A DNA stretch of 64,000 bases, taken from the NCBI RefSeq assembly GCF_003626735.1, contig NZ_RBHX01000001.1, positions 620,001 to 684,000 on the forward strand, in the 5' to 3' direction. Below are positions 43,943 to 58,469 of the stretch, in pieces. The stretch is from Microbacterium sp. CGR2 (lineage in GTDB: Bacteria; Actinomycetota; Actinomycetes; Actinomycetales; Microbacteriaceae). Each line of letters opens with the position of its first letter. Positions within the stretch are counted from its first letter, which is position 1. The notes beneath the pieces are model-generated. The model made no database searches, was not told where the DNA came from, and saw only the letters and a program-made list of their open reading frames with translations. Position numbers and translations under genes: made by a program.

Positions 43943-44883
43943 CAGTGCGTGTACTCCATGAGTTCGACACCGAGCACGCGGAACGCGTCGTGAGCGCGCA
44001 GTCGATGTGTGATCGACAGATCGTCGAAGCAGACGATGAGCGAGTACGCGACTCCCGCCCTGGGCCCCGCGAGCACCCCGGCTTCGGCGCGCACCCCGCG
44101 GTCCCGACCGGTCTTGTTGACGAAGAGGAGGCCGTGCTGGTCATGATCGTGCGCGAACGGGTCGAGTCCGGTCGAGGCGCCGACCAGACTGAGGTCGTTG
44201 TTGAGGCCGAGCCACTCCGAGACCTGCGCACTCACCGCGGCGTCGACGGCCTGGGAGTTGACCAGCGCCGAGAAGAGACCGGCGAGCTCACGCGCGGATC
44301 CGACGGCAACCTGCGGTGCATCGTCAGGCCCCCGATGGTCGCGGAACCGGTCGAGCAGAGCCGTGTGCCGCAAGCCCAGCGATTCGATGCGTTCGCGCAC
44401 CCGGTCGTGCCCGACCTTGTCCAGCAGCACATTGACCGCGACGGGGTCGCCCGACGAAGCGGCCAGCACCGCGAGGTCTTCGAGCGGAAGCGCCGGAGCG
44501 TGCAGGTGCCGCCACACCCCCGCGGTCTCCACCGCCTCGACGCTGGACCGCTCCACGATCTCGAACGGATCGAGGGTGCCGCCCTCGAAACCGGCGGCCA
44601 CCTCCACCAGCAGGGGGACGACCCCCAGGCCCGCGATCGGCAGGGTCACGTGATCGTCACCCGCCAGCACATGCATGTGTGTGTCGAGGTCGACCACGTG
44701 CACCGAGACCTGCGCCCCGGACTCCGTCAGATCTTCCAGCGAGCGCAGAGTGGAGGGGAAGGACCGGCGTTGTGGTGCCGCGCGACGTGGCAGGCGCCGG
44801 CCGGCGCGCTGCGACCGCCGCCCTTCCGCCCGGGCCGGGGCAGAGGACTTGCGGGACCCATCGAAAGGCTCGGGAACGCTCAC
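43942..44883 (-). CDS. class A beta-lactamase-like protein lacking the catalytic Ser and Lys
   Basis: A 313-residue protein with the serine beta-lactamase/DD-peptidase fold. Residues 1-45 are Arg-rich and hydrophilic with no signal peptide. The helix that should carry SxxK reads LPIAGLGVVPLLVEVA, so Ser is replaced by Gly85 and Lys by Val88. The SDN element reads SGD (134-136). The KTG motif is kept (VNKTGRD, 257-259), as are the surrounding strands. It is probably non-hydrolytic and may bind a ligand or partner. It is coupled to the 138-residue hypothetical gene. Confidence 0.78.
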   Translation of the reverse strand: MSVPEPFDGSRKSSAPARAEGRRSQRAGRRLPRRAAPQRRSFPSTLRSLEDLTESGAQVSVHVVDLDTHMHVLAGDDHVTLPIAGLGVVPLLVEVAAGFEGGTLDPFEIVERSSVEAVETAGVWRHLHAPALPLEDLAVLAASSGDPVAVNVLLDKVGHDRVRERIESLGLRHTALLDRFRDHRGPDDAPQVAVGSARELAGLFSALVNSQAVDAAVSAQVSEWLGLNNDLSLVGASTGLDPFAHDHDQHGLLFVNKTGRDRGVRAEAGVLAGPRAGVAYSLIVCFDDLSITHRLRAHDAFRVLGVELMEYTH

Positions 44884-44961
44884 TCGTGATCCTTCAGGAG
44901 AGGAGATGTGCCGATATCGTAACCCCGCCGACGAGTGGGAACCCGTGAGTGCGTCGATCGG

Positions 44962-46926
44962 TCACCAGATGGTCACCCGCGACTCCTCCGGCAGCCATAG
45001 GGCGTCTGCATCCGTCACCTCGAACGCCTCGTAGAAGGCGTCGATGTTGCGCACGATCTGGTTGCAGCGGAACTCGTTCGGAGAGTGCGGGTCGATCGTC
45101 AGCAGTCGCAGGGTCTCGGCCTCGCGGCTCTTCTGCTGCCACACCTGCGCCCAGGAGAGGAGCAGCCGCTGCACACCCGTGTACCCGTCGATGACCGGCG
45201 CCTCCCCGCCCTCCAACGACAACTCGTACGCCTTCAGCGCGATACCCAGACCTCCGAGATCCCCGATGTTCTCGCCGATCGTGAGGGCGCCGTTCACATG
45301 GTGCTCCGCCCCCAGCCCCTCGGGGACGAGCTCGTCGTACTGCGCGATCAGCGCTTTCGTGCGCTCTTCGAACGCCGCACGATCAGCATCCGTCCACCAG
45401 TCCTGAAGCCGACCGTCGCCGTCGTAGCGGCTGCCCTGATCGTCGAACCCGTGCCCGATCTCATGGCCGATCACCGCGCCGATCCCGCCGTAGTTCGCCG
45501 CGGCGTCTCGGGAGGCGTCGAAGAAGGGGTACTGCAGGATCGCCGCGGGGAAGACGATCTCGTTCATCGAGGGGTTGTAGTAGGCGTTGACCATCTGCGG
45601 CGGCATGTGCCACTCGTCGCGATCGATGGGCTTCCCGACCTTCGCGACATGACGGTCGTGCTCGAAGATCGCGGCACGACGCACGTTGCCGAACAGGTCG
45701 GCGCGGTCGATCGTCAGGCTCGAGTAGTCGCGCCAGACCGTGGGATGCCCGATCTTGGGCGTGAACGCGTCGAGCTTGGCGAGCGCCCGCTCACGGGTCT
45801 CGGCCGTCATCCACTCGAGGTTCGTGATGCTCTGCCGGTAGGCCTCGACGAGATTCGCGACGAGTTCGTCCATCGCAGCCTTCGCCGTCGGCGGATAGTG
45901 CCGCTCGACGTACACCTTGCCGATCGCTTCGCTCAGCGCCCCCTCGGTGACCGAGACGCCGCGCTTCCAGCGCTCGCGGATCGTCGGCACTCCGGTGAGC
46001 TCGGTGCCGTAGAACGAGAAGTTCTCCTGCACGAAGTCGTCGGTGAGATACGGAGCAGCGGCGTGCACGACCTGGGCACGCAGCCACGCCTTCCAGTCGT
46101 CGAGGCGGTCGACGCTGAGGAGCGAGCCGAGACCCTCGAGGAAGCTCGGCTGCGAGACCACGACCTCGTCGAAAGCGTCGGGGGCGGACGGGGCGACCGC
46201 GTCACGCCACGGGGTCAGGTCGACACCGGCGAGTTCCTGGATCTCGTTCCAGGTCTTCAGGTTGTAGGTCGCCACCGCATCGCGGCTCTTCACGTTGTCC
46301 CAGTGGTGTCCGGCGAGCTCGGTCTCGAGGGCGATCGCCCGGTCGGCCTGCGCCGCGGCATCGGTCACCCCGGCGAGCTCGAGCAGACGCTCGAGGTGTG
46401 CGCGATAGGCGGCGCGGGTGTCGACGAAGGTGTCGAGGCGGAAGTAGCTCTCGTCGGGCAGCGACAGGCCGGACTGCACGAGAACCGGGACGTAGCGCTC
46501 GGGGTTGCCGGGATCGCCGTCGACGTAGAACCCGATCAGGTGTGCACGGCCGTCGCGATCGTACGCTCCGACGGTGCGGAGGAAGGCGGGGATGCCGTCG
46601 ATCGCGTCGACCTCGGCGAAGGTCTCGGCGAGAGGCGTGGCGCCGGCGGCGGCGATCCGGTCGGTGTCCATGAAGCTGGCGAACATGTCGCCGATCTTCC
46701 GCGCGAGAGTGCCGTCGTCGGCATCCTGCGACTCTTCGATGATCGCCCTGACGTCTTTCTCCGCCTGCTCGGCGAGGAGGTGGAATGCGCCCCAGCGCGC
46801 CTTGTCTCCCGGGATCTCCGTGCGCGCGAGCCAGTTGCCGTTGACGTGGCGATACAGGTCGTCCTGCGGGCGGATGTCGGAGCTGAACTCATCAAGGGCG
46901 AGGCCCACGGGAAGAACGTCAGTCAT
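44962..46926 (-). CDS. M13-family metallopeptidase (neprilysin/PepO-like)
   Basis: A 654-residue zinc endopeptidase that cleaves oligopeptides. The N-terminal M13_N domain includes DDLYRHVNGNWLARTEIPGDKARWGAF. The catalytic domain has NAYYNPSMNEIVFPAAILQ, the zinc site HEIGHGFDDQG, and the Glu-Asp motif ENIGDLGG; the C terminus ends in a VxxW-like form (VTIW). No signal or membrane anchor is present, so it is cytoplasmic as in PepO. The start ATG 46926 has TAGGGT seven bases upstream. It stands 43 bp after the membrane-protein gene on the same strand. Confidence 0.95.
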   Translation of the reverse strand: MTDVLPVGLALDEFSSDIRPQDDLYRHVNGNWLARTEIPGDKARWGAFHLLAEQAEKDVRAIIEESQDADDGTLARKIGDMFASFMDTDRIAAAGATPLAETFAEVDAIDGIPAFLRTVGAYDRDGRAHLIGFYVDGDPGNPERYVPVLVQSGLSLPDESYFRLDTFVDTRAAYRAHLERLLELAGVTDAAAQADRAIALETELAGHHWDNVKSRDAVATYNLKTWNEIQELAGVDLTPWRDAVAPSAPDAFDEVVVSQPSFLEGLGSLLSVDRLDDWKAWLRAQVVHAAAPYLTDDFVQENFSFYGTELTGVPTIRERWKRGVSVTEGALSEAIGKVYVERHYPPTAKAAMDELVANLVEAYRQSITNLEWMTAETRERALAKLDAFTPKIGHPTVWRDYSSLTIDRADLFGNVRRAAIFEHDRHVAKVGKPIDRDEWHMPPQMVNAYYNPSMNEIVFPAAILQYPFFDASRDAAANYGGIGAVIGHEIGHGFDDQGSRYDGDGRLQDWWTDADRAAFEERTKALIAQYDELVPEGLGAEHHVNGALTIGENIGDLGGLGIALKAYELSLEGGEAPVIDGYTGVQRLLLSWAQVWQQKSREAETLRLLTIDPHSPNEFRCNQIVRNIDAFYEAFEVTDADALWLPEESRVTIW

Positions 46927-46933
46927 GCGTTCC

Positions 46934-46939
46934 ACCCTA
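46934..46939 (-). promoter_or_regulatory. -10 box, leaderless promoter of the M13 peptidase gene
   Basis: TAGGGT on the minus strand, seven bases before the ATG at 46926. Confidence 0.4.
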
Positions 46940-46969
46940 TGACCCCGCGCAGACACCGCACCCGACGGC

Positions 46970-48316
46970 TCACCACCCGGTGTGCAGCAACGACTGCACG
47001 ACGATGGCGAAGACGATCTGCACGCCGAGCAGCCAACGGCGCGTCGATGGGCCGAACAGTGCGAGTCCGAGGGTCGCCCACGGCACGAACGGCAACCAGA
47101 TCCGCTCGACCTCCGCCCTGCTCATGTTCGACAGGTCGGCGGCGAGCACCATGAGCCAGCCCGCCGCTGCCAACAGCAGCACCACCCGGTTCCGGGTGCG
47201 ACGCGCTTCGGACCGCGCGCCGACCATGCCCGAGCCGACGGCCGCGATCGAGGCGCCGATCGCCGGACCGGCGCTCACGGCGAACGCGGCGAGGTTGCCC
47301 CACAGCCAGTACTGCGGGGGCCGCCGGGAGGCGACTCCGTCCCAATAGCGCTCCTGCAGGACGGGAAAAGCCTCCCACCAGCTGAAGCCGTTCACCGCGA
47401 ACAGCAGCACCACGCCGAGGGCGGATGCCGCGGCGATCGGCAGCGGAACCCAGGACCGCCCTGCCACCAAGACGGCGACGGCCAGGATCCCGAGCAGCGG
47501 CAGGCCGTAGGACAGCATCACGCAGTACCCGAGCAGCAGGCCGGCGAGGATCGACCAGCCGACGCGCCGACTCGCCCGTGCGGCGGTGGCGAGCGCCAGC
47601 GCGGCGATCCCCCAGGCCGCGACAGCCATGAACATGCCGTCACCGGATACCGCCACCCAGATCGCGGCGGGGCTGAACACCAGGAAGGGAGCAGCACGTC
47701 GGGCGGATTCCTCCGCCCCGAGCGCCCGCAGAGCGATCATGACAGCCATGACGGTGGTCGCTCCGAGCAGAAGCACCACCGTGCCGGCGGCGAGCGCGCT
47801 GCCCAACCCCAGACGCGCGAGGACGACGAAGAACAGCAGAGCGCCGGGCGGATGACCGGCGATGTGCACAGGCCAGTTGTCGCTGTGGGCGTAGGGGATC
47901 CGCTCGACATACTCCCGGAGCGTCGCACCGAAGTCGTCGACCTCCCGCGCCGTGCCGAGATACTCGTACCGGTGGTCGAGGATGGTGCCGATACCGTCGA
48001 GCCCGTCGACCGTCGCGAGCGCGAACAGCCACAGCGCCGAAGCCGCGAAGGCGATCAGCAGCAGTCGCCCCCATCGCGCGGATGCCGCCAGTCGAGGCCC
48101 CCAGATGATTCCGGCGATGCCCAGTGCGACCGCGAGCGCGGTGCCCGGCCCGAGCCGTGGCATCCATTCGGCGTGGAGGGGCGGGAACGACTTCACGCGC
48201 ACGTTCCAGCCGGTCAGAGCAGGGACTGCGATCGCCGCCGTGATGAGGGCGAGCGCCGCGGCCACTCCCCACACCGCCGCCTTGGATCCTGGCCGCTCCA
48301 GCCCGGGCGCGCTCAT
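46970..48316 (-). CDS. polytopic membrane protein, possibly a GT-C-type glycosyltransferase
   Basis: A 448-residue protein with about 11-12 hydrophobic helices. Between helices 3 and 4 a long outside loop contains HRYEYLGTAREVDDFGATLREYVERIPYAHSDNWPVHIAGHPPG. The HPPG motif at the entry to a helix is typical of membrane glycosyltransferases that use polyprenyl-phosphate sugars, so a GT-C role is plausible but not proven. It is the last of three coupled genes (MTAP-like phosphorylase, epimerase, this gene) with an ATGA overlap to the epimerase. Together with the GT2 gene at 53.1 kb it suggests a cell-surface glycan. Confidence 0.75.
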   Translation of the reverse strand: MSAPGLERPGSKAAVWGVAAALALITAAIAVPALTGWNVRVKSFPPLHAEWMPRLGPGTALAVALGIAGIIWGPRLAASARWGRLLLIAFAASALWLFALATVDGLDGIGTILDHRYEYLGTAREVDDFGATLREYVERIPYAHSDNWPVHIAGHPPGALLFFVVLARLGLGSALAAGTVVLLLGATTVMAVMIALRALGAEESARRAAPFLVFSPAAIWVAVSGDGMFMAVAAWGIAALALATAARASRRVGWSILAGLLLGYCVMLSYGLPLLGILAVAVLVAGRSWVPLPIAAASALGVVLLFAVNGFSWWEAFPVLQERYWDGVASRRPPQYWLWGNLAAFAVSAGPAIGASIAAVGSGMVGARSEARRTRNRVVLLLAAAGWLMVLAADLSNMSRAEVERIWLPFVPWATLGLALFGPSTRRWLLGVQIVFAIVVQSLLHTGW

Positions 48317-49374
48317 CCGGTCGCCTTCTCGCGAAGCGGTGCGCGCGCGAACTCGCGGACCCCCTCGTCGAACCCGATCTCTGCGGTCCACCCCAACTCG
48401 GCGCGGATGCGATCGGCGGATGCCGTGATGTGCCGCACATCGCCCAGACGGAACTCGCCCGTTCGCAGGGGTGTCCGCTGCCCGAACGCCGCCGCCAGAC
48501 CGTCGGCGAAGTCGCCGATCGTGTGCGGCACCCCCGTTGCGACGTTGAAAGCGCGCGCCGTCTCGGGCTCGATCGTTCCGGTCCAGTCGAGCGCGGCGAG
48601 GTTCGCGCGGGCGACATCGCGGACGTGGATGAAGTCGCGGCGCTGATTGCCGTCTTCGAAGACGCGCGGAGACTCGCCGCGCTCCAGTGCCGAGCGGAAC
48701 AACGACGCGACCCCCGCGTACGGAGTGCCCTGCGGCATGTCCGGTCCGTACACGTTGTGATAGCGGAGCATCGCCGCGCGGCCACCGCCCTGCACCCAGG
48801 CGCGGGCAAGCAGCTCCTGCTCGAGTTTCGTCGCCGCATAGACGTTTCGTGGGTCGCATGGCTGCTCCTCACGGATCGAGATCGGCTTCAGAGCCGCGCC
48901 CGTGCGAGCGGAGAGCGGCTCGAAACGCCGGGCCTCGAGGTCGGCTCTGGTGCGGGGTGGAGGCTGAACGGGGCGATCGTCGTCGAGGTAGAGACCCTCC
49001 CCGTAGACGACCATCGACGAGGCGAGCACCAGGCGCTGCACCCCCGCGTCGGCCATCCCGGCGAGAAGGACGGCTGTGCCGAGAGAGTTGGAGGAGACGT
49101 AGTCCGGTGCATCGCCGATGCCGACCCCGAGACCGACCTTCGCCGCCTGATGACAGACCGCGTCGACGCCCGCGAGCGCACGCCGGACCGTGTCGTCGTC
49201 GCGGACGTCCCCGTGCACGAGCTCGATCTCCGGCCGAGGAGCACCCATGGCGGGATGCACGTCGGGGCGCAGGGAGTCGAGCACGCGCACGCGCCACCCC
49301 GCGGCGAGCGCCTCGCCGACGACCGCCGAACCGATGAAGCCGGCGCCGCCCGTGACCAGGAGCACGCCGCTCAT
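48313..49374 (-). CDS. NAD-dependent epimerase/dehydratase (extended SDR)
   Basis: A 353-residue nucleotide-sugar epimerase-like enzyme. NAD binding: VTGGAGFIGSAVVGEAL and GDVRDDDTV; active site: ASSMVVYGEG and the YxxxK in NVYAATKLEQELL; C-terminal sugar-nucleotide motifs: YHNVYGPDMPQGTPYAGV, RRDFIHVRDVARA. It probably alters the sugar of an NDP-sugar such as UDP- or GDP-hexose. The start overlaps the phosphorylase stop, and its end overlaps the membrane-protein start, both by four bases, so all three act as one operon. The exact sugar is unknown. Confidence 0.9.
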   Translation of the reverse strand: MSGVLLVTGGAGFIGSAVVGEALAAGWRVRVLDSLRPDVHPAMGAPRPEIELVHGDVRDDDTVRRALAGVDAVCHQAAKVGLGVGIGDAPDYVSSNSLGTAVLLAGMADAGVQRLVLASSMVVYGEGLYLDDDRPVQPPPRTRADLEARRFEPLSARTGAALKPISIREEQPCDPRNVYAATKLEQELLARAWVQGGGRAAMLRYHNVYGPDMPQGTPYAGVASLFRSALERGESPRVFEDGNQRRDFIHVRDVARANLAALDWTGTIEPETARAFNVATGVPHTIGDFADGLAAAFGQRTPLRTGEFRLGDVRHITASADRIRAELGWTAEIGFDEGVREFARAPLREKATG

Positions 49375-50228
49375 CCGCGCGACCACAGGAGGGCGTCGAC
49401 CACATCCGGGGCCAGCTTCGGCTCGGGAGAGCAGTGCGACGGAATCGCATCGATGATCGCGGCGACGGCGGCGCTGAGACGCGGCTGCGCCTCAGCCATC
49501 ACGGCGAAGACCCGTTCCGCGGTCGCGGACGTGTCGGTGTCACCCTCGCCGCGCTCGGTGTCGGTGTCGGTGACGATCGCGAGGTTCACATGCGCGAAGC
49601 CGACTTCGGCGGCGAGCGCCGCTTCGGGCAGCTGCGTCATGTTGACCAGGTGCGCGCCCATCGCGCGGTGCCAGTCGGCCTCTGCCGCGGTCGCGAACCG
49701 TGGCCCCTGAATGACGACGCTCGTGCCACCGGGATGCACGCGCTCGCCGAGGTTCCGGAGCGCCTGCAGCGCGATCCCGCGGAGCTCCGCGTCATAAGGC
49801 TCGGCGAACGGCAGATGCTGCACGCCGATGCCGTCCTGGCCTCCGTCGAAGTAGGTGTCGGGTCTGCCGTGCGTCCGGTCGATCAGCTGATCGGTGAGCA
49901 CGAAGTCGCCGGGACGCAACGGATCGGTGAGTCCGCCGACGGCGTTGGTCGACAGGAGTATCCGCGCGCCCAGCCGACGCAGACCCCACAGGAGCGGCCG
50001 CGGATCGACACGGTGCGGCGGCACGCGGTGCCCCGCGCCGTGCCGAGGCGCGAAGGCCACGCGACGGCTGCCCAGCCGCCCGGTCACGACCTCCGGGATC
50101 TCCCCCCAGGGCGATTCCCGCGGCGGGAGGACCGCTCGATCGGCGAGGTCGAGTGTCTGGAATCCCGATCCTCCGATCACGGCGAACTCGACATCCGGGC
50201 CATCACCGTTGCGCGCTGCATCCGTCAT
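49371..50228 (-). CDS. MTA/purine nucleoside phosphorylase family enzyme
   Basis: A 285-residue phosphorylase of the trimeric MTAP/PNP family that splits a purine nucleoside with phosphate into base and ribose-1-phosphate. Motifs are AVIGGSGFQTL, APRHGAGHRVPPHRVD, STNAVGGLTDPLRPGDFVL, IQGPRFATAAE and the purine-site NMTQLPEAALAAE. The Asp pair in IVTDTD matches the adenine-specific MTAP type rather than the guanine/hypoxanthine type. It heads the operon with the epimerase and the membrane protein; that partnership is unusual for a salvage enzyme. CAGTCT is six bases before the ATG. Confidence 0.9.
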   Translation of the reverse strand: MTDAARNGDGPDVEFAVIGGSGFQTLDLADRAVLPPRESPWGEIPEVVTGRLGSRRVAFAPRHGAGHRVPPHRVDPRPLLWGLRRLGARILLSTNAVGGLTDPLRPGDFVLTDQLIDRTHGRPDTYFDGGQDGIGVQHLPFAEPYDAELRGIALQALRNLGERVHPGGTSVVIQGPRFATAAEADWHRAMGAHLVNMTQLPEAALAAEVGFAHVNLAIVTDTDTERGEGDTDTSATAERVFAVMAEAQPRLSAAVAAIIDAIPSHCSPEPKLAPDVVDALLWSRG

Positions 50229-50234
50229 GCACCC

Positions 50235-50353
50235 AGACTGCGCGAGCGGCGGACGTGGCGGCGGGTGATTTTCTTACACCGCGGTGACATCTCACGCCCG
50301 TCACCGTTCTGTAAGGGGATCGCGGTCCCAGACTTCGCCTCCCTTCCCATACT
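50235..50353. promoter_or_regulatory. divergent leaderless promoters of the phosphorylase and molybdopterin-fold genes
   Basis: CAGTCT (50235-50240, minus) is six bases before the phosphorylase ATG, and CATACT (50348-50353, plus) is six bases before the ATG at 50360. Confidence 0.4.
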
Positions 50354-50359
50354 GGGGGC

Positions 50360-51562
50360 ATGAGCAACGCTCGCACTCCCGACTCCGTGACCGAGAGGCT
50401 GTCCCTCGCGCTGCAGGAGCGATCGGGGCGCGTCCGCGAGGCCCTCGGCTCCCCTGTCCGGACGACGCGCATGGCGGTCGTCGTGGGCCGCCTGCTCGGG
50501 CTCGGCTTCGCGATCTGCTTCGTGACGGGTGTGTACAGCCACCTGCTGCAGGATCCGCTCCCCTGGCTGCCGCTGCCCGTGGGGCCGGCGTATCTCTATG
50601 CCTCGACGCAGGGCACGCATGTCGTCGTGGGGTCGGCGCTCATCCCGCTCGTCCTCGCGAAGCTGTGGATCGTCTTCCCGAGGCTCTTCACCTGGCCGCC
50701 GGTGCGCAGCCTCCCCCATCTCCTCGAACGGGTGAGCGTGGCCGTGCTCGTCTCGACCGCACTCATGGAACCCGTCACGGGGTTGCTGAACAGCCTGCAG
50801 TGGTACCCGTGGGGTTTCTCATTCCGTCGCACGCACTTCGCTCTCGCCTGGGTGCTCATCGGGGCACTGGTGGTGCACATCGCCGTGCATCTCCCGGCCA
50901 TCGCGAGAGCATGGCGAGCGGATGCCGCTGACGAGAGTGGGACGAAGAAGACGCCCGAGGAGCGCGCGGACATCTCGCGGAGGGCCTTCCTGTGGGGCGT
51001 GGGTGGGAGCGGTGCACTGCTGGGAACCGCAGCCGTCGCGCACGCGACGACACCGATCGGGCCGTTCAGCCTGAAGAGTCCTCGGTCGCGCATCGGCAGC
51101 CCCCAGGACCTGCCGGTCAACCGATCCGCACGCCAAGCCGACGTCACGGCGCTCGCGCTCGATCCCGGCTGGCGTCTGCATCTCGCCGCCGGAGACGCCG
51201 CCGTCGCGCTCACGCTCGCCGACCTCGACGCCCTGCCGCAACGGACCGAGGTTCTCCCGATCGCCGGCGTGGAGGGGTGGACCGTCGATGCGACGTGGCA
51301 AGGCGTGCGACTTCGGGATCTGCTCGCACTCGTGGATGCTCCGGCCGACGCGACGATCCGCTTCCGCAGCATGCAGCGGCGCGGGGCATTCCGTGAGACG
51401 ACGATGCCCCCGGCCTACGCCCGCGACCCGCGCACCCTCGTCGCCCTGCGCGTCAACGGCGAGCCACTCGACGTCGACCACGGGTATCCCGCCCGCGTGA
51501 TCGCCCCGGGAAGACCGGGCGTGCTGCAGACCAAGTGGCTCGAATCCATCGAGGTCGCCTGA
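50360..51562 (+). CDS. membrane-anchored molybdopterin-fold oxidoreductase with cytochrome b-like helices and internal Tat motif
   Basis: A 400-residue protein. Residues about 38-180 hold four hydrophobic helices with spaced His residues (THVVV, THFALAW, VHIAVHL), resembling a b-type cytochrome anchor. Residues 206-211 read SRRAFL, followed by a mild hydrophobic stretch ending AHA, a twin-arginine signal inside the chain. Residues about 240-400 are a sulfite-oxidase-like molybdopterin domain (EGWTVDATWQGVRLRDLL, MPPAYARDPRTLVALRVNGEPLDVDHGYPARVI). The Cys that normally binds molybdenum is Gly303 (IAGVEGW). It is coupled to a small membrane gene. Confidence 0.88.
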   Translation: MSNARTPDSVTERLSLALQERSGRVREALGSPVRTTRMAVVVGRLLGLGFAICFVTGVYSHLLQDPLPWLPLPVGPAYLYASTQGTHVVVGSALIPLVLAKLWIVFPRLFTWPPVRSLPHLLERVSVAVLVSTALMEPVTGLLNSLQWYPWGFSFRRTHFALAWVLIGALVVHIAVHLPAIARAWRADAADESGTKKTPEERADISRRAFLWGVGGSGALLGTAAVAHATTPIGPFSLKSPRSRIGSPQDLPVNRSARQADVTALALDPGWRLHLAAGDAAVALTLADLDALPQRTEVLPIAGVEGWTVDATWQGVRLRDLLALVDAPADATIRFRSMQRRGAFRETTMPPAYARDPRTLVALRVNGEPLDVDHGYPARVIAPGRPGVLQTKWLESIEVA

Positions 51563-51816
51563 TGCGCGCGACTCGCTTCGTCCTCGCCGCCGCCGGTGCG
51601 CTTCTTCTCGGATGGGGTATCTGGCTGATGCTCAGCCGACAGGATCTCGACCAGCTGGCCAGTGCCGCGCTCTGGCTCATCGCGGTCGTCGTCGTGCACG
51701 ACGGGCTGGTCGCGGCGATCGGCGCCGTGCGTCATCGGCGTCGGCGGGGGCGGGGGCGAGGGCGTCCGCGAGGGCGATCACACCGCGCGGGAGAGGCGAA
51801 CGAAGGCTCGATCTGA
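51562..51816 (+). CDS. small membrane protein with Arg-rich tail
   Basis: An 84-residue protein with two hydrophobic helices (about 5-24 and 34-55) and a very basic C terminus (RHRRRRGRGRGRPRGRSHR). Its start overlaps the stop of the molybdopterin-fold gene by one base, so it is likely a partner of that protein. I do not recognise a family. The last 39 bases overlap the methyltransferase gene on the other strand. Confidence 0.7.
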   Translation: MRATRFVLAAAGALLLGWGIWLMLSRQDLDQLASAALWLIAVVVVHDGLVAAIGAVRHRRRRGRGRGRPRGRSHRAGEANEGSI

Positions 51817-52446
51817 GACGGCCCATTCCTCGATGAACCTCAACCCCGTGTCCGTGACTCGGTCGCGCAACGCCGCGGCACCGATGTCGTGCCAGGGGAA
51901 CGGCGAGCTCGAGCGCCCATCCTCATCGACCACGGTGGCCTCGAATCCACGGTCGACGTCCGGGTCGGGGTCGACCTCGACGACGATGGTGCCGCGCGAC
52001 GAGATGATCTGCGCGCAGCGCGCCAGCAGCACCGCCGGATCCCCGCCGATGCCGATGTTCCCGTCGAGCAGCAGGAGCGTCTCCCACGAGCCCTCCTGCG
52101 GAAGAACATCGAACACCGACAGCTGCAGAGCAGGGAGACCGCGCTCTCTGGCGTGTTCGACCGCGGTGTGCGAGACGTCGACTCCGAGCGCGAGCAGGCC
52201 GGCGCGGATCGCCGCGTGCAGGATCCGGCCCGGGCCGCAGCCGACGTCGAGCAGAGGGCCACGAGCGCGCGAGATCACCGAGTCATCCGCCGCATCCGCC
52301 GCAGCGAGGAAGCGAGCGATCTCGACGCGCCGCCCGGCTCCCGCCGCGAGTTCGACGAGGCGGAGTGTGCCGCCGCCGTTGCGGAGCGCCACATCGTAGG
52401 GCGCATCACCGCCGGCGCCGAAATGCGCTACCCGCGGGGCGCTCAT
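51778..52446 (-). CDS. class I SAM-dependent methyltransferase
   Basis: A 222-residue enzyme. Motif I is PLLDVGCGPGRILHAAI, with the acidic Asp of motif II in ALGVDVSHTAVEHARERG; LLLLDGNIGIGGDPAVLL follows as the motif IV region. An unusual N-terminal segment, APYDVALRNGGGTLRLVELA, precedes the fold. It is the third gene of GT2-TIGR04282-methyltransferase, with an ATGA overlap to the upstream gene. The substrate is unknown; a sugar or a lipid-linked intermediate is an inference from the neighbours. Confidence 0.87.
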   Translation of the reverse strand: MSAPRVAHFGAGGDAPYDVALRNGGGTLRLVELAAGAGRRVEIARFLAAADAADDSVISRARGPLLDVGCGPGRILHAAIRAGLLALGVDVSHTAVEHARERGLPALQLSVFDVLPQEGSWETLLLLDGNIGIGGDPAVLLARCAQIISSRGTIVVEVDPDPDVDRGFEATVVDEDGRSSSPFPWHDIGAAALRDRVTDTGLRFIEEWAVSDRAFVRLSRAV

Positions 52447-53117
52447 GATGCGCCTCCTCGTCGGTCGATCCCCAGCTCCACGAGCAAGGTCGCGAGATGA
52501 CCCCCGCGTGGCAGGCTGTCGGACACCGCCCGCAACGACTCGATGTCGTCGATGTCCGTGAGGGGCGGAGCATCCGTCACGCGCAGCCACGCATCGGCGA
52601 GGCGCTCACGCTGCCGCGCCCCCGTCTCCACCGAGGACATCGGCACGCCGCGCACCAGGTCGCCCCGCGATCTGCCGCCGAGTCTGCACGGCGAGAGATC
52701 GTCGAGACCCAGCAGCCAGAACCCGCCGTCGTCGGCAGGGCCGAACCAGCCGTCGATGTCATCGGGCCACTCCTCGGCGAAGCTCCGCAGAAGCAGCGGA
52801 TCGACCTGGGGCGTGTCCATGCCGATGAGCAGCACGCGTCCCGCACACTCCTCGACCGCGGCGGCGATGCGTTCGTCCAGGCCGCCATCGACCTGCGGAA
52901 TCGATCGCATCCCGGCGCGCACCGGAACGTCGCCCTGAGCGCAGACGACGACGGGCAGTCCCGACGCCTCGGCGGCGTCGAGCGTGTCGGCCAGGCTCGC
53001 GGCAGCGACACGGGCGGCGTCCGCCAGGGTGAGCGGCGGATGCAGCCGCGTCTTCACTCGGCCCGGGAGGCACTCCTTCGCCATCACCATGATGGTCGTC
53101 GTCTCGCTCATGCCCAT
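52443..53117 (-). CDS. TIGR04282/DUF2064 family nucleotidyl- or glycosyltransferase-like protein
   Basis: A 224-residue protein with a GT-A/CofC-like fold. It has VMAKECLPGRVKTRLHPPLTLADAARVAAASLADTLDA, the family hallmark start, LLIGMDTPQVDPLLLRSF (metal-site Asp) and PADDGGFWLLGL. The family (rSAM/selenodomain-associated transferase 1) is known from arsenosugar and other unusual-sugar clusters; its reaction is not settled. The ATG at 53117 is chosen for AAGGAG six bases upstream and overlaps the GT2 gene by 10 bp. An ATG two codons later would overlap by four. Confidence 0.87.
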   Translation of the reverse strand: MGMSETTTIMVMAKECLPGRVKTRLHPPLTLADAARVAAASLADTLDAAEASGLPVVVCAQGDVPVRAGMRSIPQVDGGLDERIAAAVEECAGRVLLIGMDTPQVDPLLLRSFAEEWPDDIDGWFGPADDGGFWLLGLDDLSPCRLGGRSRGDLVRGVPMSSVETGARQRERLADAWLRVTDAPPLTDIDDIESLRAVSDSLPRGGHLATLLVELGIDRRGGAS

Positions 53118-53812
53118 GTCCGGCTCCTTGCCCCTGCGTGTCCCGCCCCGCCGGCGTGCCGTCGCAGCATCCGCTGCATGTCGGCCACCGCCGTGATGGT
53201 TCCTCGTACCGTGCCGGTGACCTTGGAGCGCCCCAATCGCGGCCGGTAGTCCACGTCGACCTCCCCGATTCGCAACCCCTCCTGCCAGGCGCGCAACAGC
53301 AGCTCGAGCGGGTAGCCGCTGCGGCGATCCTCCAATCCGAGAGCCAGGAGTTGCTCTCGTCGCCCGGCGCGGAACGGGCCGAGATCGCGCACGGGCAACC
53401 CCGTCCGGCGTCGCACCGACGCGAGCAGCACGCTGTTCGCGAACCTGGCGTGCACCGGCCAGGCTGCGGCACTCACCACGCGGCGCCGACCGAAGACGAG
53501 GTCGCTCTCGTCGCGGTGGACCGGCCCTGCGACCCGGTCGATCTGGCTGAGATCGAACGAACCGTCGGCATCGCAGAAGACGACGACGGGAGCGGTCGCG
53601 GCGCAGAGCCCCGCGTGCACCGCGGCACCGTAACCGCGCAATGGCGCCTCCACGACCAGCGCCCCCGCGTCGCGGGCGACCTCGGCCGATCCGTCGGTGG
53701 ATCCGTTGTCGACCACTATCGCCCTGACGTCTCGCGGGAGCGCGGCGAGCACGCCGGGGAGTGCGGCCGCCTCGTTCAGGCACGGCAGGACGACGTCGGT
53801 GCGGATGCTCAT
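53108..53812 (-). CDS. glycosyltransferase family 2 (dolichyl-phosphate-sugar synthase-like)
   Basis: A 234-residue GT2 enzyme: VVLPCLNEAAALPGVLAALP, VDNGSTDGSAEVARDAGA, and the metal-binding DxD in VVFCDADGSFDL. FGRRRV and RRSGYPLELLLRAWQEGLRIGEVDVDYRPRLGRSKVTGTVRG follow the pattern of polyprenyl-phosphate hexose synthases. It has no membrane helix, so it would act at the inner membrane face. It is the first gene of the GT2-TIGR04282-methyltransferase operon and is divergent from the two-component system. TAGCGT six bases before the ATG marks a leaderless start. Confidence 0.9.
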   Translation of the reverse strand: MSIRTDVVLPCLNEAAALPGVLAALPRDVRAIVVDNGSTDGSAEVARDAGALVVEAPLRGYGAAVHAGLCAATAPVVVFCDADGSFDLSQIDRVAGPVHRDESDLVFGRRRVVSAAAWPVHARFANSVLLASVRRRTGLPVRDLGPFRAGRREQLLALGLEDRRSGYPLELLLRAWQEGLRIGEVDVDYRPRLGRSKVTGTVRGTITAVADMQRMLRRHAGGAGHAGARSRTWA

Positions 53813-53818
53813 ACCGAG

Positions 53819-53927
53819 ACGCTAAACAGCATGGCCGCCGCCCGGCACGCGAAGTCCTTACGAACCGAGGAAGGATGCCCCTGGAGGCCGGATTCGCCCC
53901 CGCGCGGCGACAGCCCGAACCTACGAT
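53819..53927. promoter_or_regulatory. divergent leaderless promoters of the GT2 operon and the two-component system
   Basis: TAGCGT (53819-53824, minus) and TACGAT (53922-53927, plus) each lie six bases before their start codons. The roughly 100 bp between them could hold a shared response-regulator site, though no clear repeat is visible. Confidence 0.5.
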
Positions 53928-53933
53928 GGGACC

Positions 53934-54653
53934 ATGTCCCAGCCGCCCGCGGAGTCCGCCGAGCTCACCGACCGTCGCGTGCTCGTGATCGAGGACGACG
54001 CGATGGTCAGCGAGGTCGTGCACACGTATCTCCGCGCCGCGGGCTACCTGGTGGACAGCGCGACCGACAGCTTCTCCGGCCTCGCCGCGGTCGCCGAACT
54101 CTCCCCCGATCTGATCGTGCTCGATCGGATGCTGCCGGGTTTCGACGGTGCCGAGGTGTGCCGCCGCATCCGGGCCGTCTCGACCGTGCCGATCATCATG
54201 CTCACCGCCCTCGGATCCGAAGACGACCGCATCGACGGTCTGGAAGCGGGCGCCGACGACTACATCGTCAAGCCGTTCTCACCGAAGGAGCTGGTGCTGC
54301 GCGTCACGTCCGTGCTGCGGCGGAGCCTGCCGGAGTTCGCCCGAGAGGCCCCGTTCGACCTCGGACCCTTCCATCTCGATCCTTCTGCACGGATCGTGAC
54401 GAAGGACGGCGTGACGCTGGAGTTGTCGGTGCGGGAGTTCGATCTGTTCTGCTTCTTGCTGAAGCATCCGCGGCAGACCTTCGACCGGTCCACCCTCCTG
54501 CGCAGCGTCTGGGGGTGGGAGATCGGCGACCTCTCGACGGTCACCGTCACGACCCGGCGGCTCCGCGAGAAGATCGAGGAGGACCCCGGCAACCCGGCGG
54601 TGCTCGTCACGGTCTGGGGAGTCGGCTACCGCCTGGAACTGGGAGGCCCCTGA
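53934..54653 (+). CDS. OmpR-family response regulator
   Basis: A 239-residue two-domain regulator. The receiver domain (about 14-125) has the acidic pair in VIEDDAMV, the phospho-acceptor Asp in LIVLDRMLPGFDG, Thr in MLTALG and Lys in IVKPFSPKE. The C-terminal winged helix (about 140-235) has LSVREFDLFCFLLKHPRQTFDRSTLLRSVWG and VTVTTRRLREKIEEDP. It is coupled to the kinase gene by a one-base overlap. Its divergence from the GT2 operon suggests that operon, and perhaps the whole 47-54 kb cluster, as target. Confidence 0.95.
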   Translation: MSQPPAESAELTDRRVLVIEDDAMVSEVVHTYLRAAGYLVDSATDSFSGLAAVAELSPDLIVLDRMLPGFDGAEVCRRIRAVSTVPIIMLTALGSEDDRIDGLEAGADDYIVKPFSPKELVLRVTSVLRRSLPEFAREAPFDLGPFHLDPSARIVTKDGVTLELSVREFDLFCFLLKHPRQTFDRSTLLRSVWGWEIGDLSTVTVTTRRLREKIEEDPGNPAVLVTVWGVGYRLELGGP

Positions 54654-55789
54654 TGCCCTTCGCCGACGTCGCCGCGATCGCCGGCATCGCGCTCGCGTGG
54701 GCCCTTCTGATCGGCGGTCTCGGGCTCCTCGCCCTGTGGATGCTGCGCCGACGCTCCCTGATGCTGCAACTGTGCGTCGTCATCGTGGCGGTCGTGGGGT
54801 CGTTCGCCGCCGGGGTGCTCGCGGTGGCCGAGGCGATGTACATCTCGCAACACGACCTGCTGGTCGTCGTGGTCGTGACGGCCATCTCCGCGGTGGTGGC
54901 ACTGGCCGTGGCCGTGCTGCTGGCGACCCGACTCGTGCGCGGGGTCCGCTCCCTCCAGCAGCTGACGCACTCCGTCGGTGACGGCGAACGACTCGACGGC
55001 ACCCGCGCGCCCGTGGTGAACGCCGACTTCGCGCGCGTCGCCCAGGAGCTCGTCGCCACCAGCGAGCGTCTCTCCGCCGCCCGAGAAGAGGTGCAGGTCC
55101 TCGACCGCTCGCGGCGGGAGCTGATCGCCTGGATCTCGCACGACCTGCGGAGTCCGCTCGCGGGACTCCGCGCGATGACCGAGGCTTTGGACGACGGCCT
55201 CGCGGACGACCCCGCGCGCTTCCACCGGCAGATGCGGCGGCAGGTCGATCACATGACCGATCTGGTCGACAGTCTCTTCCAACTGTCGAAGATCACCTCG
55301 GGCACGCTCGTGCTCCGGCCCGAACCGATGTCGCTGCACGATCTGGTCAGCGACGCGGTCGCGGAGCTCGCTCCGATCGCCCGCGCCAAGCAGGTCACGC
55401 TCATCGAGCTCACCAGTCCCGATCACACCGTCGTCGGCGACTCGAGGGAGTTGTCGCGCGTGATGATCAACCTCCTCGCCAACGCCATCGAGCACACGCC
55501 GACCGGAGGGACCATCCGCACCAGCACCGCCCGCGAGGGCGAGACGATGGTGCTCTCGGTCGAGGACTCCGGAACGGGCATCGCCGACGACGATCTGGCA
55601 CGCGTGTTCGAGCCGGGCTGGCGCGGCACCGACGCCCGCACCCCGGGGGCCGGCATCCACGGCACCAGCGGGGCGGGGCTCGGGCTCGCGATCGCCCGGG
55701 GCATCGTCGAGGCGCACGACGGAGTGATCAGCGCCCATCGCGCCGACGGCGGTTCCCGGTTCGACGTGCGCCTTCCCCAGGCGATGTGA
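54653..55789 (+). CDS. sensor histidine kinase
   Basis: A 378-residue membrane kinase. Three hydrophobic helices (about 7-29, 38-60, 69-92) are joined by very short loops, so there is no large external sensor domain; the signal is likely sensed in or at the membrane. A HAMP-like stretch precedes the HisKA domain (SHDLRSPLAGLRAMTEAL, His near 160). The ATPase domain has the N box NLLANAIEHT and G boxes DSGTGIADDDL and GTSGAGLGLAIARGIV. It pairs with the upstream OmpR-type regulator. Confidence 0.94.
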   Translation: MPFADVAAIAGIALAWALLIGGLGLLALWMLRRRSLMLQLCVVIVAVVGSFAAGVLAVAEAMYISQHDLLVVVVVTAISAVVALAVAVLLATRLVRGVRSLQQLTHSVGDGERLDGTRAPVVNADFARVAQELVATSERLSAAREEVQVLDRSRRELIAWISHDLRSPLAGLRAMTEALDDGLADDPARFHRQMRRQVDHMTDLVDSLFQLSKITSGTLVLRPEPMSLHDLVSDAVAELAPIARAKQVTLIELTSPDHTVVGDSRELSRVMINLLANAIEHTPTGGTIRTSTAREGETMVLSVEDSGTGIADDDLARVFEPGWRGTDARTPGAGIHGTSGAGLGLAIARGIVEAHDGVISAHRADGGSRFDVRLPQAM

Positions 55790-55797
55790 CGGCAGAC

Positions 55798-56355
55798 TCA
55801 GCGCTGCCGACGCGGGAAGCCGAGACGGCGGCGACGAGGCGGTTCGGGGTCGGATGCCGCGGGTCTGGCGGCCCTGCGCTGCGCCCATGCTGCGACGGTC
55901 TCCTCGATGTCGCGCGGTGCCGTGACGACCGGAGGTCCGCCCTGGAGTTGTCGGCGCGCTTCGATCAAGCGACGGTTGAAGTCCTCGAGCACGTCGCGCA
56001 CATCCGCCTCGCGGCCGAGCAGGTCGAGCTGGTCGTCGAGCTCCCGATCCTCGTTGCGCAGCAGAATGGCGGGCGGGCCGAGTCCGGTGAGGTTCTCGGT
56101 CTCGATCTTCCGACGGATCCACCAGTCCGGGTCATGGTGGTCACCGAGGCCCTCGAGGGGCTTTCCGGCGCCGGGCAGATCGTCGAAGTCGCCGCGGCGG
56201 ATCGCCACCTGGATCGCGCTCTCGATGAAGGCGGCTCGATCGACAGCGGCAGCAGACCCGGGGGCAGCGCCGGCCTCTTCGTCGGACTCACCCGCATCCT
56301 GCGGGGCCTGCTGACGAGCGCGGTACCGCGCCGCCGCTTCCCGTGGGTCTGTCAT
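55798..56355 (-). CDS. DUF1992/DnaJ-homologue C28-like protein
   Basis: A 185-residue protein. The DUF1992 core (about 42-110) is clear: FIESAIQVAIRRGDFDDLPGAGKPLEGLGDHHDPDWWIRRKIETENLTG. The N terminus is polar and acidic, and the C terminus is strongly basic (PPRRRRLGFPRRQR). There is no J domain itself. The function of the family is unknown. GGAGG is six bases before the ATG, so this gene is leadered. It is convergent with the kinase gene, 8 bp away, with no clear terminator. Confidence 0.88.
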   Translation of the reverse strand: MTDPREAAARYRARQQAPQDAGESDEEAGAAPGSAAAVDRAAFIESAIQVAIRRGDFDDLPGAGKPLEGLGDHHDPDWWIRRKIETENLTGLGPPAILLRNEDRELDDQLDLLGREADVRDVLEDFNRRLIEARRQLQGGPPVVTAPRDIEETVAAWAQRRAARPAASDPEPPRRRRLGFPRRQR

Positions 56356-56435
56356 GATGCACCTCCGCAGCATCCGATACCTCCCATGTTACGAGCGACG
56401 TCCCGCGGCCGCGCGGGGGAGTCGGCGGCACGCCA

Positions 56436-56441
56436 TAGGCT
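56436..56441 (+). promoter_or_regulatory. -10 box, leaderless promoter of the MATE gene
   Basis: TAGGCT six bases before the ATG at 56448. Confidence 0.45.
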
Positions 56442-56447
56442 CGGAGG

Positions 56448-57770
56448 ATGACCGCGCGCCTGTCCCTCAATCGAGAGATCCTGCGCCTCGCCGTCCCCGC
56501 GCTCGGGGCCCTCATCGCCGAACCCGCGTTCCTCATCGTCGACGCCGCGCTGGTCGGCCACCTGGGTACGACGCCCCTGGCGGGGCTCGGAATCGCCGGC
56601 GCTGTCCTGCAGACCATCGTCGGACTCATGGTGTTCCTCGCGTACTCGACCACCCCGGCGGTCGCGCGACGTTTCGGTGCCGGCCGACCAGGCGAAGCCG
56701 TCTCCGTCGGGGTCAACGGCATGTGGCTCGCGCTCGGTTTGGGCTCCGTCCTCGCCGTCATCGGCGCCGTGTCCTCCCCGTGGCTCGTCTCGCTGTTCGG
56801 TGCGGGAGAGGCCGTCGCCGCCGACGCGGAGGCGTACCTGGTCATCTCGATGTGGGGCCTGCCCGCGATGCTCATCGTCTTCGCCGCAACAGGGCTGCTG
56901 CGCGGCATGCAGGACACGATGACTCCCCTGTGGATCGCCGGTCTCGGCTTCGGGGCGAACGCACTGTTGAACTGGGTGTTCATCTACGGTTTCGGCTGGG
57001 GCATCGCCGGCTCCGCCGCCGGCACCGTCGCCGCCCAGTGGGGCATGGTCGCCGCCTACGCGCTGGTCGTCCGCCGCCTCGCCACACGGCACAGCGCATC
57101 GCTGCGAGCTCAGCGCGACGGCATCCGCAGCACCGCGACCTCCGGCGGATGGCTGTTCCTGCGCACGGTGAGCCTTCGCGTCGCCCTGCTCGCGACGGTC
57201 GCGGTCGCCACCGGCATCGGCACCGAAGAGCTCGCCGGGTGGCAGATCGTCTTCACGATCTTCTCGGCGGCGGCCTTCGCCCTCGACGCGCTGGCCATCG
57301 CCGCCCAGGCCCTCATCGGCAAAGAGCTCGGCGCCGGAGACGAACGGCAGGTGCATCGGGTGCTCGGGCGCACCGTGGCGTGGGGCGTGTGGTTCGGAGT
57401 GATCGTCGGCGCCCTGATCGCGGCGCTCTCCGGAGTGCTCGGCATCGTCTTCACCGGCGACCCCGAGATCGCGGCGCTCGTGCAACCGGCGCTGCTCGTG
57501 CTGGCGGTCGCCCAGCCGGTCGCCGGCGTGGTGTTCGTGCTCGACGGAGTGCTGATGGGGGCCAACGACGCCCGCTACCTCGCGATCGCCGGCGTCCTCA
57601 ACCTGGTGCCGTTCCTTCCGGTGCTGTGGCTCATCGTCACGCTCGGGGTCGACGGCAGCACCGGTCTGATCTGGCTCGGCGTCGCGTTCTTCGGCGTGTA
57701 CCTGCTCGCGCGTCTGGCGACGCTCGGCTGGCGGGTGCGGTCGGGCCGCTGGCTCTCCGCCACCGCCTGA
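56448..57770 (+). CDS. MATE family efflux transporter (DinF-like)
   Basis: A 440-residue protein with 12 helices in two similar halves. The start REILRLAVPALGALIAEPAFLIVDAALVGHLG is the DinF-subfamily N terminus, with Asp and Glu in the first helix that take part in cation coupling. The second half has IVFTIFSAAAFALDALAIAAQALIGKELGAGD. It exports cationic drugs or metabolites in exchange for H+ or Na+. It is single and convergent with the TrmH-type gene; only 6 bp separate the two stop codons. Confidence 0.94.
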   Translation: MTARLSLNREILRLAVPALGALIAEPAFLIVDAALVGHLGTTPLAGLGIAGAVLQTIVGLMVFLAYSTTPAVARRFGAGRPGEAVSVGVNGMWLALGLGSVLAVIGAVSSPWLVSLFGAGEAVAADAEAYLVISMWGLPAMLIVFAATGLLRGMQDTMTPLWIAGLGFGANALLNWVFIYGFGWGIAGSAAGTVAAQWGMVAAYALVVRRLATRHSASLRAQRDGIRSTATSGGWLFLRTVSLRVALLATVAVATGIGTEELAGWQIVFTIFSAAAFALDALAIAAQALIGKELGAGDERQVHRVLGRTVAWGVWFGVIVGALIAALSGVLGIVFTGDPEIAALVQPALLVLAVAQPVAGVVFVLDGVLMGANDARYLAIAGVLNLVPFLPVLWLIVTLGVDGSTGLIWLGVAFFGVYLLARLATLGWRVRSGRWLSATA

Positions 57771-57776
57771 GCAGAC

Positions 57777-58469
57777 CTACGGTCGCTTCGCGTACCTGCG
57801 GCACCACTCGTACATGATGACGGCCGCGGCGGCGCTCGCATTGATGGATCGGGTCGACCCGTACTGCGTGATCTCGACATGAGCGGATGCCGCGGCGAGC
57901 GCCTCGGCCGACAGGCCCGGCCCTTCCTGACCGAACAGCAGCACGCATCGCTCGGGGAGGTCGGCGGCGTCGACGGGCACGGACCCCGGGACGTTGTCGA
58001 CCGCGATGATCGGGAGGCCTTCTCGCGCCGCCCAGGCCGCGAACACCTCGACGTCTTCGTGGTGCACGACGTGCTGGTAGCGGTCGGTGACCATCGCACC
58101 GCGTTTGTTCCAGCGGCGTCGCCCGATGATGTGCACCGTGTCGGCGAGGAACGCGTTCGCGCTCCGCACGATCGAGCCGATGTTCATGTCGTGCTGCCAG
58201 TTCTCGATGGCGACGTGGAACGGATGGCGTTGCGTGTCGAGGTCGGCGACGATCGCCTCCATCCGCCAGTAGCGGTAGCGGTCGATGACGTTGCGGGTAT
58301 CGCCGGCCGCGAGCAGTTCGGGGTCGAACTCGTCCCCCTCCGGCCATGCGTCCGCACCGCCGGGCCAGGGACCGACGCCGTATCCCGGCTGCGCGGCAGA
58401 CCCACCGCGCGTCGGGGATTCGCCGGGCATTCGTGCCTCGGCGCGAGCCTCCGGGGTCTGATCGTCCAT
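57777..58469 (-). CDS. TrmH/SpoU-family RNA 2'-O-methyltransferase
   Basis: A 230-residue SPOUT methylase. Motif 1 is NWQHDMNIGSIVRSANAF, motif 2 is CVLLFGQEGPGLS and motif 3 is ITQYGSTRSINASAAAAVIMYEW, together forming the SAM knot. The N-terminal 50 residues are Pro/Gly-rich and probably disordered; YRYWRMEAIVADLDTQRHP links to the domain. It methylates a ribose 2'-OH in tRNA or rRNA; the target is not known. TAGCCT six bases before the ATG gives a leaderless start. It is divergent from mntH. Confidence 0.93.
   Translation of the reverse strand: MDDQTPEARAEARMPGESPTRGGSAAQPGYGVGPWPGGADAWPEGDEFDPELLAAGDTRNVIDRYRYWRMEAIVADLDTQRHPFHVAIENWQHDMNIGSIVRSANAFLADTVHIIGRRRWNKRGAMVTDRYQHVVHHEDVEVFAAWAAREGLPIIAVDNVPGSVPVDAADLPERCVLLFGQEGPGLSAEALAAASAHVEITQYGSTRSINASAAAAVIMYEWCRRYAKRP

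What the first reader, a model, noticed from the sequence alone, without database searches (positions are those of the whole stretch)
46970..55789. Candidate undescribed glycoconjugate or modified-sugar system
Within about 9 kb lie a GT2 polyprenyl-phosphate-sugar-synthase-like enzyme, a TIGR04282/DUF2064 transferase and a methyltransferase (operon 1), an adenine-type MTAP-like phosphorylase, a nucleotide-sugar epimerase and a polytopic GT-C-like membrane protein (operon 2), and a membrane molybdopterin-fold protein with a small membrane partner. A two-component system diverges from operon 1. Gene starts and stops overlap throughout each operon. TIGR04282 proteins and nucleoside phosphorylases are known near arsenosugar-type pathways, where a nucleoside adduct loses adenine before glycosylation. 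Here no radical-SAM gene is present. My inference is a pathway that takes a nucleoside-derived or NDP-sugar unit, methylates it, moves it to a lipid carrier and modifies it outside the cell.
Basis: partly seen in the sequence, partly recalled or inferred. Interest (0 to 1): 0.75.

Follow-up and report, generated by a model that had tools for sequence, protein, structure and literature searches.

The report
Methylthio-sugar capping cluster in Microbacterium
The genes look like a version of the pathway that puts a rare sulphur sugar (methylthioxylose) on the tuberculosis bacterium's coat, here in a Microbacterium without the usual enzymes for that coat polymer and with an added molybdenum enzyme that may repair or oxidise the sulphur, so this sugar chemistry may be much more widespread than described.

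Summary
In detail: ten overlapping genes at 46970-55789 in a Microbacterium genome. The set recurs: at least 4 of 6 partner genes lie beside the GT-C gene in 56 of 61 full-flank named loci, flanking genes in 3 or fewer. The "undescribed" pathway has a described relative, 5-methylthioxylose (MTX) capping of mycobacterial lipoarabinomannan. The GT-C protein is 40% identical to one named methylthioxylose transferase, and mycobacterial loci carry phosphorylase, epimerase, GT2, TIGR04282 and GT-C together. What differs: 32 of 41 GT-C-positive genomes, this one included, show no Emb arabinosyltransferase, so another acceptor is likely; and a Tat-type, cytochrome-b-fused sulfite-oxidase-fold molybdoenzyme belongs to the set. 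In 198 mycobacterial genomes it occurs in 132 of 149 with the GT-C gene and 1 of 49 without, often not nearby. I propose that it interconverts the MTX thioether and its known sulfoxide outside the cell, more likely as reductase. This strain's copy lacks the molybdenum-ligand cysteine. Product, acceptor and direction are untested.

The parts
46970..48316 (-). GT-C-like polytopic membrane glycosyltransferase, MtxT (methylthioxylose transferase) family
   Evidence: 40% identity over 412 columns to P0030, which JGI names methylthioxylose transferase; invariant residues in alignment A1; no Pfam/NCBIfam model
48313..49374 (-). NAD-dependent sugar epimerase (proposed ribo-to-xylo step, inferred)
   Evidence: Pfam Epimerase 1.6e-47; present in 71 of 80 loci
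49371..50228 (-). MTAP-like purine nucleoside phosphorylase (proposed: MTA + phosphate to 5-methylthioribose-1-phosphate + adenine)
   Evidence: TIGR01694 220 bits, below cut-off 274.85; PDB MTAPs at best 7.1e-47; best of two matches in own genome, the other a partial one of 75 bits
50360..51562 (+). MOCO: four-helix cytochrome-b-like membrane part, twin-arginine motif at residues 206-211, sulfite-oxidase-fold domain about 240-400; Gly303 where the relatives examined have Cys
51562..51816 (+). Small hydrophobic (probably membrane) protein, overlaps MOCO stop by one base
   Evidence: ORF; membrane character judged by eye only; tblastn relatives in 20 of 80 loci
51778..52446 (-). Class I SAM-dependent methyltransferase-fold protein, partner of MOCO (role unknown)
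   Evidence: Methyltransf_25/11; model pLDDT 92.8, Foldseek to SAM methyltransferases; within 2.5 kb of MOCO in 55 of 58 loci that hold both
52443..53111 (-). TIGR04282/DUF2064 (CofC/MobA-like) protein, proposed nucleotidyltransferase or transferase on the sugar-1-phosphate
   Evidence: TIGR04282 2.4e-26, below cut-off; PDB 3cgx 7.8e-29, CofC-type guanylyltransferase 1.3e-4
53108..53812 (-). GT2 polyprenyl-phosphate sugar synthase, proposed MtxS-like
   Evidence: Glycos_transf_2 1.6e-18; dolichyl-phosphate hexose transferase family 1.7e-25, below cut-off; 71 of 80 loci
53934..54653 (+). OmpR-type response regulator
   Evidence: 35 of 80 loci
54653..55789 (+). Sensor histidine kinase
   Evidence: 35 of 80 loci

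Best explanation
It is a methylthioxylose-type (MTX-type) cell-surface sugar pathway. Inferred steps: the MTAP-like phosphorylase splits 5'-methylthioadenosine to adenine and 5-methylthioribose-1-phosphate; the TIGR04282 protein activates or transfers it; the epimerase sets the xylo configuration; the GT2 loads it on polyprenyl phosphate; the GT-C protein transfers it, outside the cell, to an unknown surface glycan that is unlikely to be lipoarabinomannan in this host. A Tat-exported molybdoenzyme fed by its own membrane cytochrome b then interconverts the thioether and its sulfoxide, more likely reducing sulfoxide back to thioether as MsrPQ does for methionine. Shown: gene content, conservation, co-inheritance, predicted folds and motifs. 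Inferred: every reaction, the order of the middle steps, the acceptor. In this strain the molybdoenzyme lacks the metal-ligand cysteine and is predicted to be inactive or altered. The confidence is for the MTX-type pathway; for the reductase step alone I would give about 0.4.
For: Sequence: GT-C 40% identical to a protein named methylthioxylose transferase; 11 of the 120 listed relatives of a mycobacterial member bear that name. Layout: type-1 mycobacterial loci L179-L182, L233, L236 hold phosphorylase, epimerase, about 3.5-4 kb, GT2, TIGR04282, then GT-C in opposite sense; in L233 menE, a PHO4-type transporter and menB follow, which agrees with the recalled M. tuberculosis Rv0535-Rv0548c order. 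Literature: MtxT = Rv0541c and MtxS = Rv0539 (legend); decaprenyl-phosphate donor, starting from methylthioadenosine, GT-C outside the cell. In 61 full-flank named loci: EPI 57, GT2 57, TIGR04282 55, MT 54, MOCO 50, MTAP 47, against M13 peptidase 3, DUF1992 1, MATE 1. No Emb family in own genome; 32 of 41 GT-C-positive genomes of 396 show none. MOCO: in 33 of 41 phylum genomes with GT-C and 10 of 355 without; in 132 of 149 mycobacteria with GT-C and 1 of 49 without; not within 20 kb of it in 61 of 129 genomes with both positions printed. The sulfoxide of MTX occurs in all four LAM preparations of one study. Own genome has MoaA and TatC.
Against: No product or enzyme was assayed. The primary paper (Angala 2017) was not held, so gene-to-step links beyond MtxS/MtxT are recalled or inferred. 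The name methylthioxylose transferase is an annotation by one source. MTAP and TIGR04282 fall below family cut-offs, so substrates may differ. MTAP is absent within 10 kb in 14 of 61 loci, and 3 of 61 loci have the GT-C with none of the six partners. 17 mycobacteria have GT-C without MOCO at the thresholds used, and 10 phylum genomes have MOCO without GT-C, four of them beside GT2, TIGR04282 and EPI and three more beside GT2 and EPI. Some Emb-less genomes of the phylum sample are incomplete (down to 67%). 42 of the 61 'not within 20 kb' cases lie on different contigs, where nearness is not excluded. Related genomes are not independent, so the Fisher values overstate. MOCO's Gly303 argues that at least that step is off here.
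Confidence: 0.75

Rival explanations
1. Same pathway, but the molybdoenzyme works in the oxidising direction, making the sulfoxide (MSX) from MTX and passing electrons to the quinone pool.
For: Sulfite oxidases and sulfite dehydrogenases head the fold and sequence matches; the sulfoxide is a real constituent of LAM.
Against: The plan (Tat-exported catalytic domain plus heme-b membrane part) is that of MsrPQ, a sulfoxide reductase (recalled); reduction of the MTX sulfoxide by an Msr enzyme has a precedent (title of a 2009 paper in a reference list).
Confidence: 0.3
2. The pathway makes a different 5-modified pentose (for example from 5'-deoxyadenosine or another adenosine derivative), an analogue of MTX rather than MTX; the methyltransferase supplies the modification.
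For: MTAP and TIGR04282 are below family cut-offs; a methyltransferase is present in 66 of 80 loci but was not found in the type-1 mycobacterial loci.
Against: GT-C belongs to the family in which proteins are named methylthioxylose transferase; MTAPs are the best PDB matches of the phosphorylase.
Confidence: 0.2
3. An arsenosugar-like pathway, as the family name TIGR04282 suggests.
For: TIGR04282 match 2.4e-26 and a nucleoside phosphorylase.
Against: Match is below the family's cut-off; no arsenic methyltransferase or radical-SAM family hit among the nine cluster proteins scanned.
Confidence: 0.03
4. Ordinary housekeeping genes that happen to lie together.
For: The phosphorylase is the only near-complete MTAP match in the genome, so it may also serve MTA salvage.
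Against: At least 4 of 6 partners recur beside the GT-C gene in 56 of 61 full-flank loci from many genera, in several gene orders.
Confidence: 0.02

Closest known systems
Methylthioxylose (MTX) capping pathway of mycobacterial lipoarabinomannan, MtxS (Rv0539) / MtxT (Rv0541c)
   Same: Phosphorylase, epimerase, GT2, TIGR04282 and GT-C families, in a conserved neighbourhood; lipid-linked donor and external GT-C
   Different: Host has no Emb match; molybdoenzyme, methyltransferase, small protein and two-component system are inside the locus; the type-1 mycobacterial locus L233 has two other ORFs between epimerase and GT2, one with DUF7937
MsrPQ periplasmic methionine sulfoxide reductase (YedYZ)
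Three-component pentofuranose systems (polyprenyl-phosphoribose synthase, MATE flippase, GT136 GT-C)
   Same: Lipid-linked pentofuranose added outside the cell by a GT-C enzyme, with auxiliary epimerases (abstract and discussion passage)
   Different: Starts from PRPP, not methylthioadenosine; the MATE gene at 56448-57770 lies near the cluster but was found in only 1 of 80 loci
TIGR04282/TIGR04283 arsenosugar-associated glycosyltransferases
   Same: Distant family resemblance of the DUF2064 protein and weakly of the GT2
   Different: Below cut-offs; no arsenic genes recognised among the nine proteins scanned

Membership tests
MTX pathway | GT-C of the MtxT family | tested here: met
   40% identity to a protein so named; the name is an annotation, not an assay
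MTX pathway | Phosphorylase, epimerase, GT2 and TIGR04282 genes beside it | tested here: met
   same set in mycobacterial loci
MTX pathway | Lipoarabinomannan as acceptor (Emb arabinosyltransferases present) | tested here: not met
   No PF04602 match in own genome while the Corynebacterium control rings
MTX pathway | Product 5-deoxy-5-methylthio-xylofuranose | not testable with these tools
   needs chemistry
Molybdenum enzymes of the sulfite oxidase fold | Fold | tested here: met
Molybdenum enzymes of the sulfite oxidase fold | Cysteine ligand of molybdenum | tested here: not met
   Gly303 in the window; Cys in 38 of 38 other rows of A3, in all 88 MOCO motifs matched, in 4 further loci and in 19 of 19 Microbacterium loci with the gene. 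The family meets it, this copy does not
MsrPQ | MsrP family score | tested here: not met
   21 bits against cut-off 207: works like at most, not a member
MsrPQ | Sulfoxide reductase activity | not testable with these tools
   needs assay
TIGR04282 arsenosugar transferase | Score above family cut-off | tested here: not met
   92.7 against 134 bits
S-methyl-5'-thioadenosine phosphorylase (TIGR01694) | Score above family cut-off | tested here: not met
   220 against 274.85 bits; PDB MTAPs are still the best matches

The most novel reading that the evidence does not exclude
Methylthio-pentose caps are a widespread, renewable antioxidant coat of Actinobacteria: the thioether on a surface glycan takes up oxidants, becoming a sulfoxide, and a quinol-fed, Tat-exported molybdoenzyme (the MOCO family, which in mycobacteria would be the Rv0218-type protein) reduces it back, so the sugar works like surface methionine in the MsrPQ cycle. 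The methyltransferase travels with this enzyme and would tailor the same sugar. (Anti-oxidative properties of MTX have been proposed in print, passage in PMC10503756.)
Probability: 0.3. Interest if true: 0.8.

Novelty: new variant of a known kind. Interest (0 to 1): 0.62.

Why it matters
A 2024 paper states that it is unclear whether MTX addition exists outside lipoarabinomannan assembly (PMC11127046). Here the gene set lies in an Emb-less genome, and 32 of 41 carriers in a phylum sample show no Emb match, so the question becomes directly testable in Microbacterium. A co-inherited molybdoenzyme also offers a candidate for making or repairing the MTX sulfoxide seen in lipoarabinomannan. MTX-lipoarabinomannan is a target of tuberculosis immunoassays (title of PMC6258851), so occurrence of the genes in many other Actinobacteria would bear on how specific that sugar is.

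Tried and rejected
Arsenosugar reading: rejected on scores and missing partners. Clustering of all ORFs in 80 loci for further conserved partners: the known genes stood out; I took most other families to be shadow frames of the GC-rich DNA from their positions and did not check them one by one, so a minor partner in up to about 18 of 80 loci could be missed. One scan of viral contigs with the window GT-C alone found no relative. Rfam on 44000-58000: no match. Simple scan of 50150-54000: no sigma-70 promoter-like site, two terminator-like sites that I did not use. The fold of the methyltransferase did not fix a substrate; AzeJ, a relative bound to MTA, is among many similar matches and I draw nothing from it. 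Papers: DUF2064 with glycosyltransferase none; TIGR04282 two, seen as a listing only; methylthioxylose with Actinobacteria none; methylthioxyl with molyb one, where the molybdenum word is a staining reagent. These cover only the held library.
Full report
What is there. The window lies in contig 1 of a genome of 3.97 Mb in 4 contigs, completeness 100. Ten genes fill 46970-55789. Two minus-strand operons (phosphorylase-epimerase-GT-C; GT2-TIGR04282-methyltransferase) flank a plus-strand pair (molybdopterin protein and small protein), and a two-component pair diverges from the GT2. Neighbours within the operons overlap by 4 bases, those in the plus-strand pairs by 1.

Is it a unit? With window proteins as queries (tblastn, E up to 1e-5) the 80 loci hold epimerase 71, GT2 71, TIGR04282 68, methyltransferase 66, MOCO 61, MTAP 58, RR and HK 35 each, small protein 20; the window's other neighbours are found 3, 1 and 1 times. 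Of the 61 loci with full flanks, 40 have all six partners, 12 five, 4 four, 1 three, 1 one and 3 none. Gene order varies between genera, so the association is not just inherited synteny. The loci were ranked by similarity to the window, so this is not a random sample. In an even draw of 396 phylum genomes GT-C (E up to 1e-15) occurs in 41 and MOCO (E up to 1e-25) in 43, both in 33. In Microbacterium GT-C occurs in 23 of 247. Of these I fetched 20 loci and G014's; G819 was not looked at. Of the 20, 19 hold the epimerase, 19 MOCO, 18 MTAP, 18 GT2, 18 TIGR04282, 17 the methyltransferase and 17 the two-component pair (L218 lacks GT2, TIGR04282, methyltransferase and two-component genes in its stretch, L229 lacks MTAP, methyltransferase and two-component genes, L230 has GT-C only).

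What it is. A mycobacterial GT-C relative searched against 5.8 billion proteins gives a family in which 11 of the 120 listed carry the JGI name methylthioxylose transferase; the window protein is 40% identical to one of them. [quoted passage not shown] Mycobacterial loci L179-L182, L233 and L236 show phosphorylase, epimerase, about 3.5-4 kb, GT2, TIGR04282 and GT-C in opposite sense; in L233 the gap holds a DUF7937 protein and another ORF, and menE, a PHO4 transporter and menB follow GT-C. This agrees with the recalled Rv0535-Rv0548c map, but no named M. tuberculosis sequence was compared. In L237 the set is cut by the end of the stretch; in L235 TIGR04282 and GT2 lie about 8 kb from GT-C. A second mycobacterial type (L176-L178, L183) carries MOCO, methyltransferase and the two-component pair in the locus, as in the window.

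What is different. First, the host is not expected to make lipoarabinomannan of the mycobacterial kind: no PF04602 match in its genome, and 32 of the 41 GT-C-positive phylum genomes show none, while 9 do; some of the 32 are incomplete assemblies. Second, MOCO belongs to the system. Among 198 mycobacterial genomes, GT-C (E up to 1e-30) is in 149 and MOCO (E up to 1e-60) in 133; both in 132, GT-C alone in 17, MOCO alone in one (G518, a partial hit), neither in 48. In 129 genomes whose positions were printed for both, 68 have them within 20 kb and 61 do not; of the 61, 19 have them on one contig 0.38-2.0 Mb apart and 42 on different contigs, where nearness is not excluded (lower-scoring extra copies were not listed). 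Co-inheritance without linkage argues for shared function; shared ancestry of the genomes means that the Fisher values (about 1e-31 phylum, 3e-30 genus) are not probabilities. Third, the methyltransferase goes with MOCO: within 2.5 kb in 55 of 58 loci with both, and at three of five stand-alone mycobacterial MOCO loci read (L198-L200 yes; L201 and L234 no).

How it works, step by step. Shown: genes, predicted folds, motifs, recurrence. Inferred: MTA to methylthioribose-1-phosphate (phosphorylase); activation by the CofC/MobA-like TIGR04282 protein (3cgx and CofC among the three PDB matches); epimerisation; loading on polyprenyl phosphate (GT2); external transfer (GT-C); sulfur redox (MOCO). 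The flippase, the acceptor glycan, the methyltransferase reaction and the signal of the two-component system are unknown.

Verdict. It is a variant of a described pathway, with two things that I did not find in print in the searches made (held library only, listings and passages): its spread outside lipoarabinomannan makers and the co-inherited molybdoenzyme.

Noticed in passing
window 51266-51268 (MOCO residue 303): Gly where every relative examined has Cys; predicted loss of the molybdenum ligand in this strain's copy.
   Followed up: yes
L060, L045 and 13 of 19 Microbacterium loci: The molybdoenzyme gene is split into an overlapping membrane ORF and a Tat-leader ORF (two ORFs checked in L060 and L045 only), an MsrQ/MsrP-like arrangement, whereas elsewhere it is mostly one chain.
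   Followed up: partly
G670 C1, G720 C1, L232: The MtxT-like gene gives two search pieces and may be broken in some Microbacterium.
   Followed up: no
L202, L203, L204, L208: MOCO with GT2, TIGR04282, epimerase and two-component genes but no recognisable MtxT nearby: perhaps a different final transferase.
   Followed up: no
G528 contig C34 (138170 and 191321): Two GT-C/MOCO pairs about 53 kb apart in opposite orientation with equal scores: a duplication or an assembly effect.
   Followed up: no
window 44962-46956 and 55798-57770: M13 peptidase, DUF1992 and MATE genes flank the cluster in near Microbacterium (all three in L213 and L136; peptidase and MATE in L214) but rarely elsewhere.
   Followed up: partly
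L233 15229-16851: A DUF7937 protein lies between epimerase and GT2 in the mycobacterial type of the cluster; role unknown.
   Followed up: no
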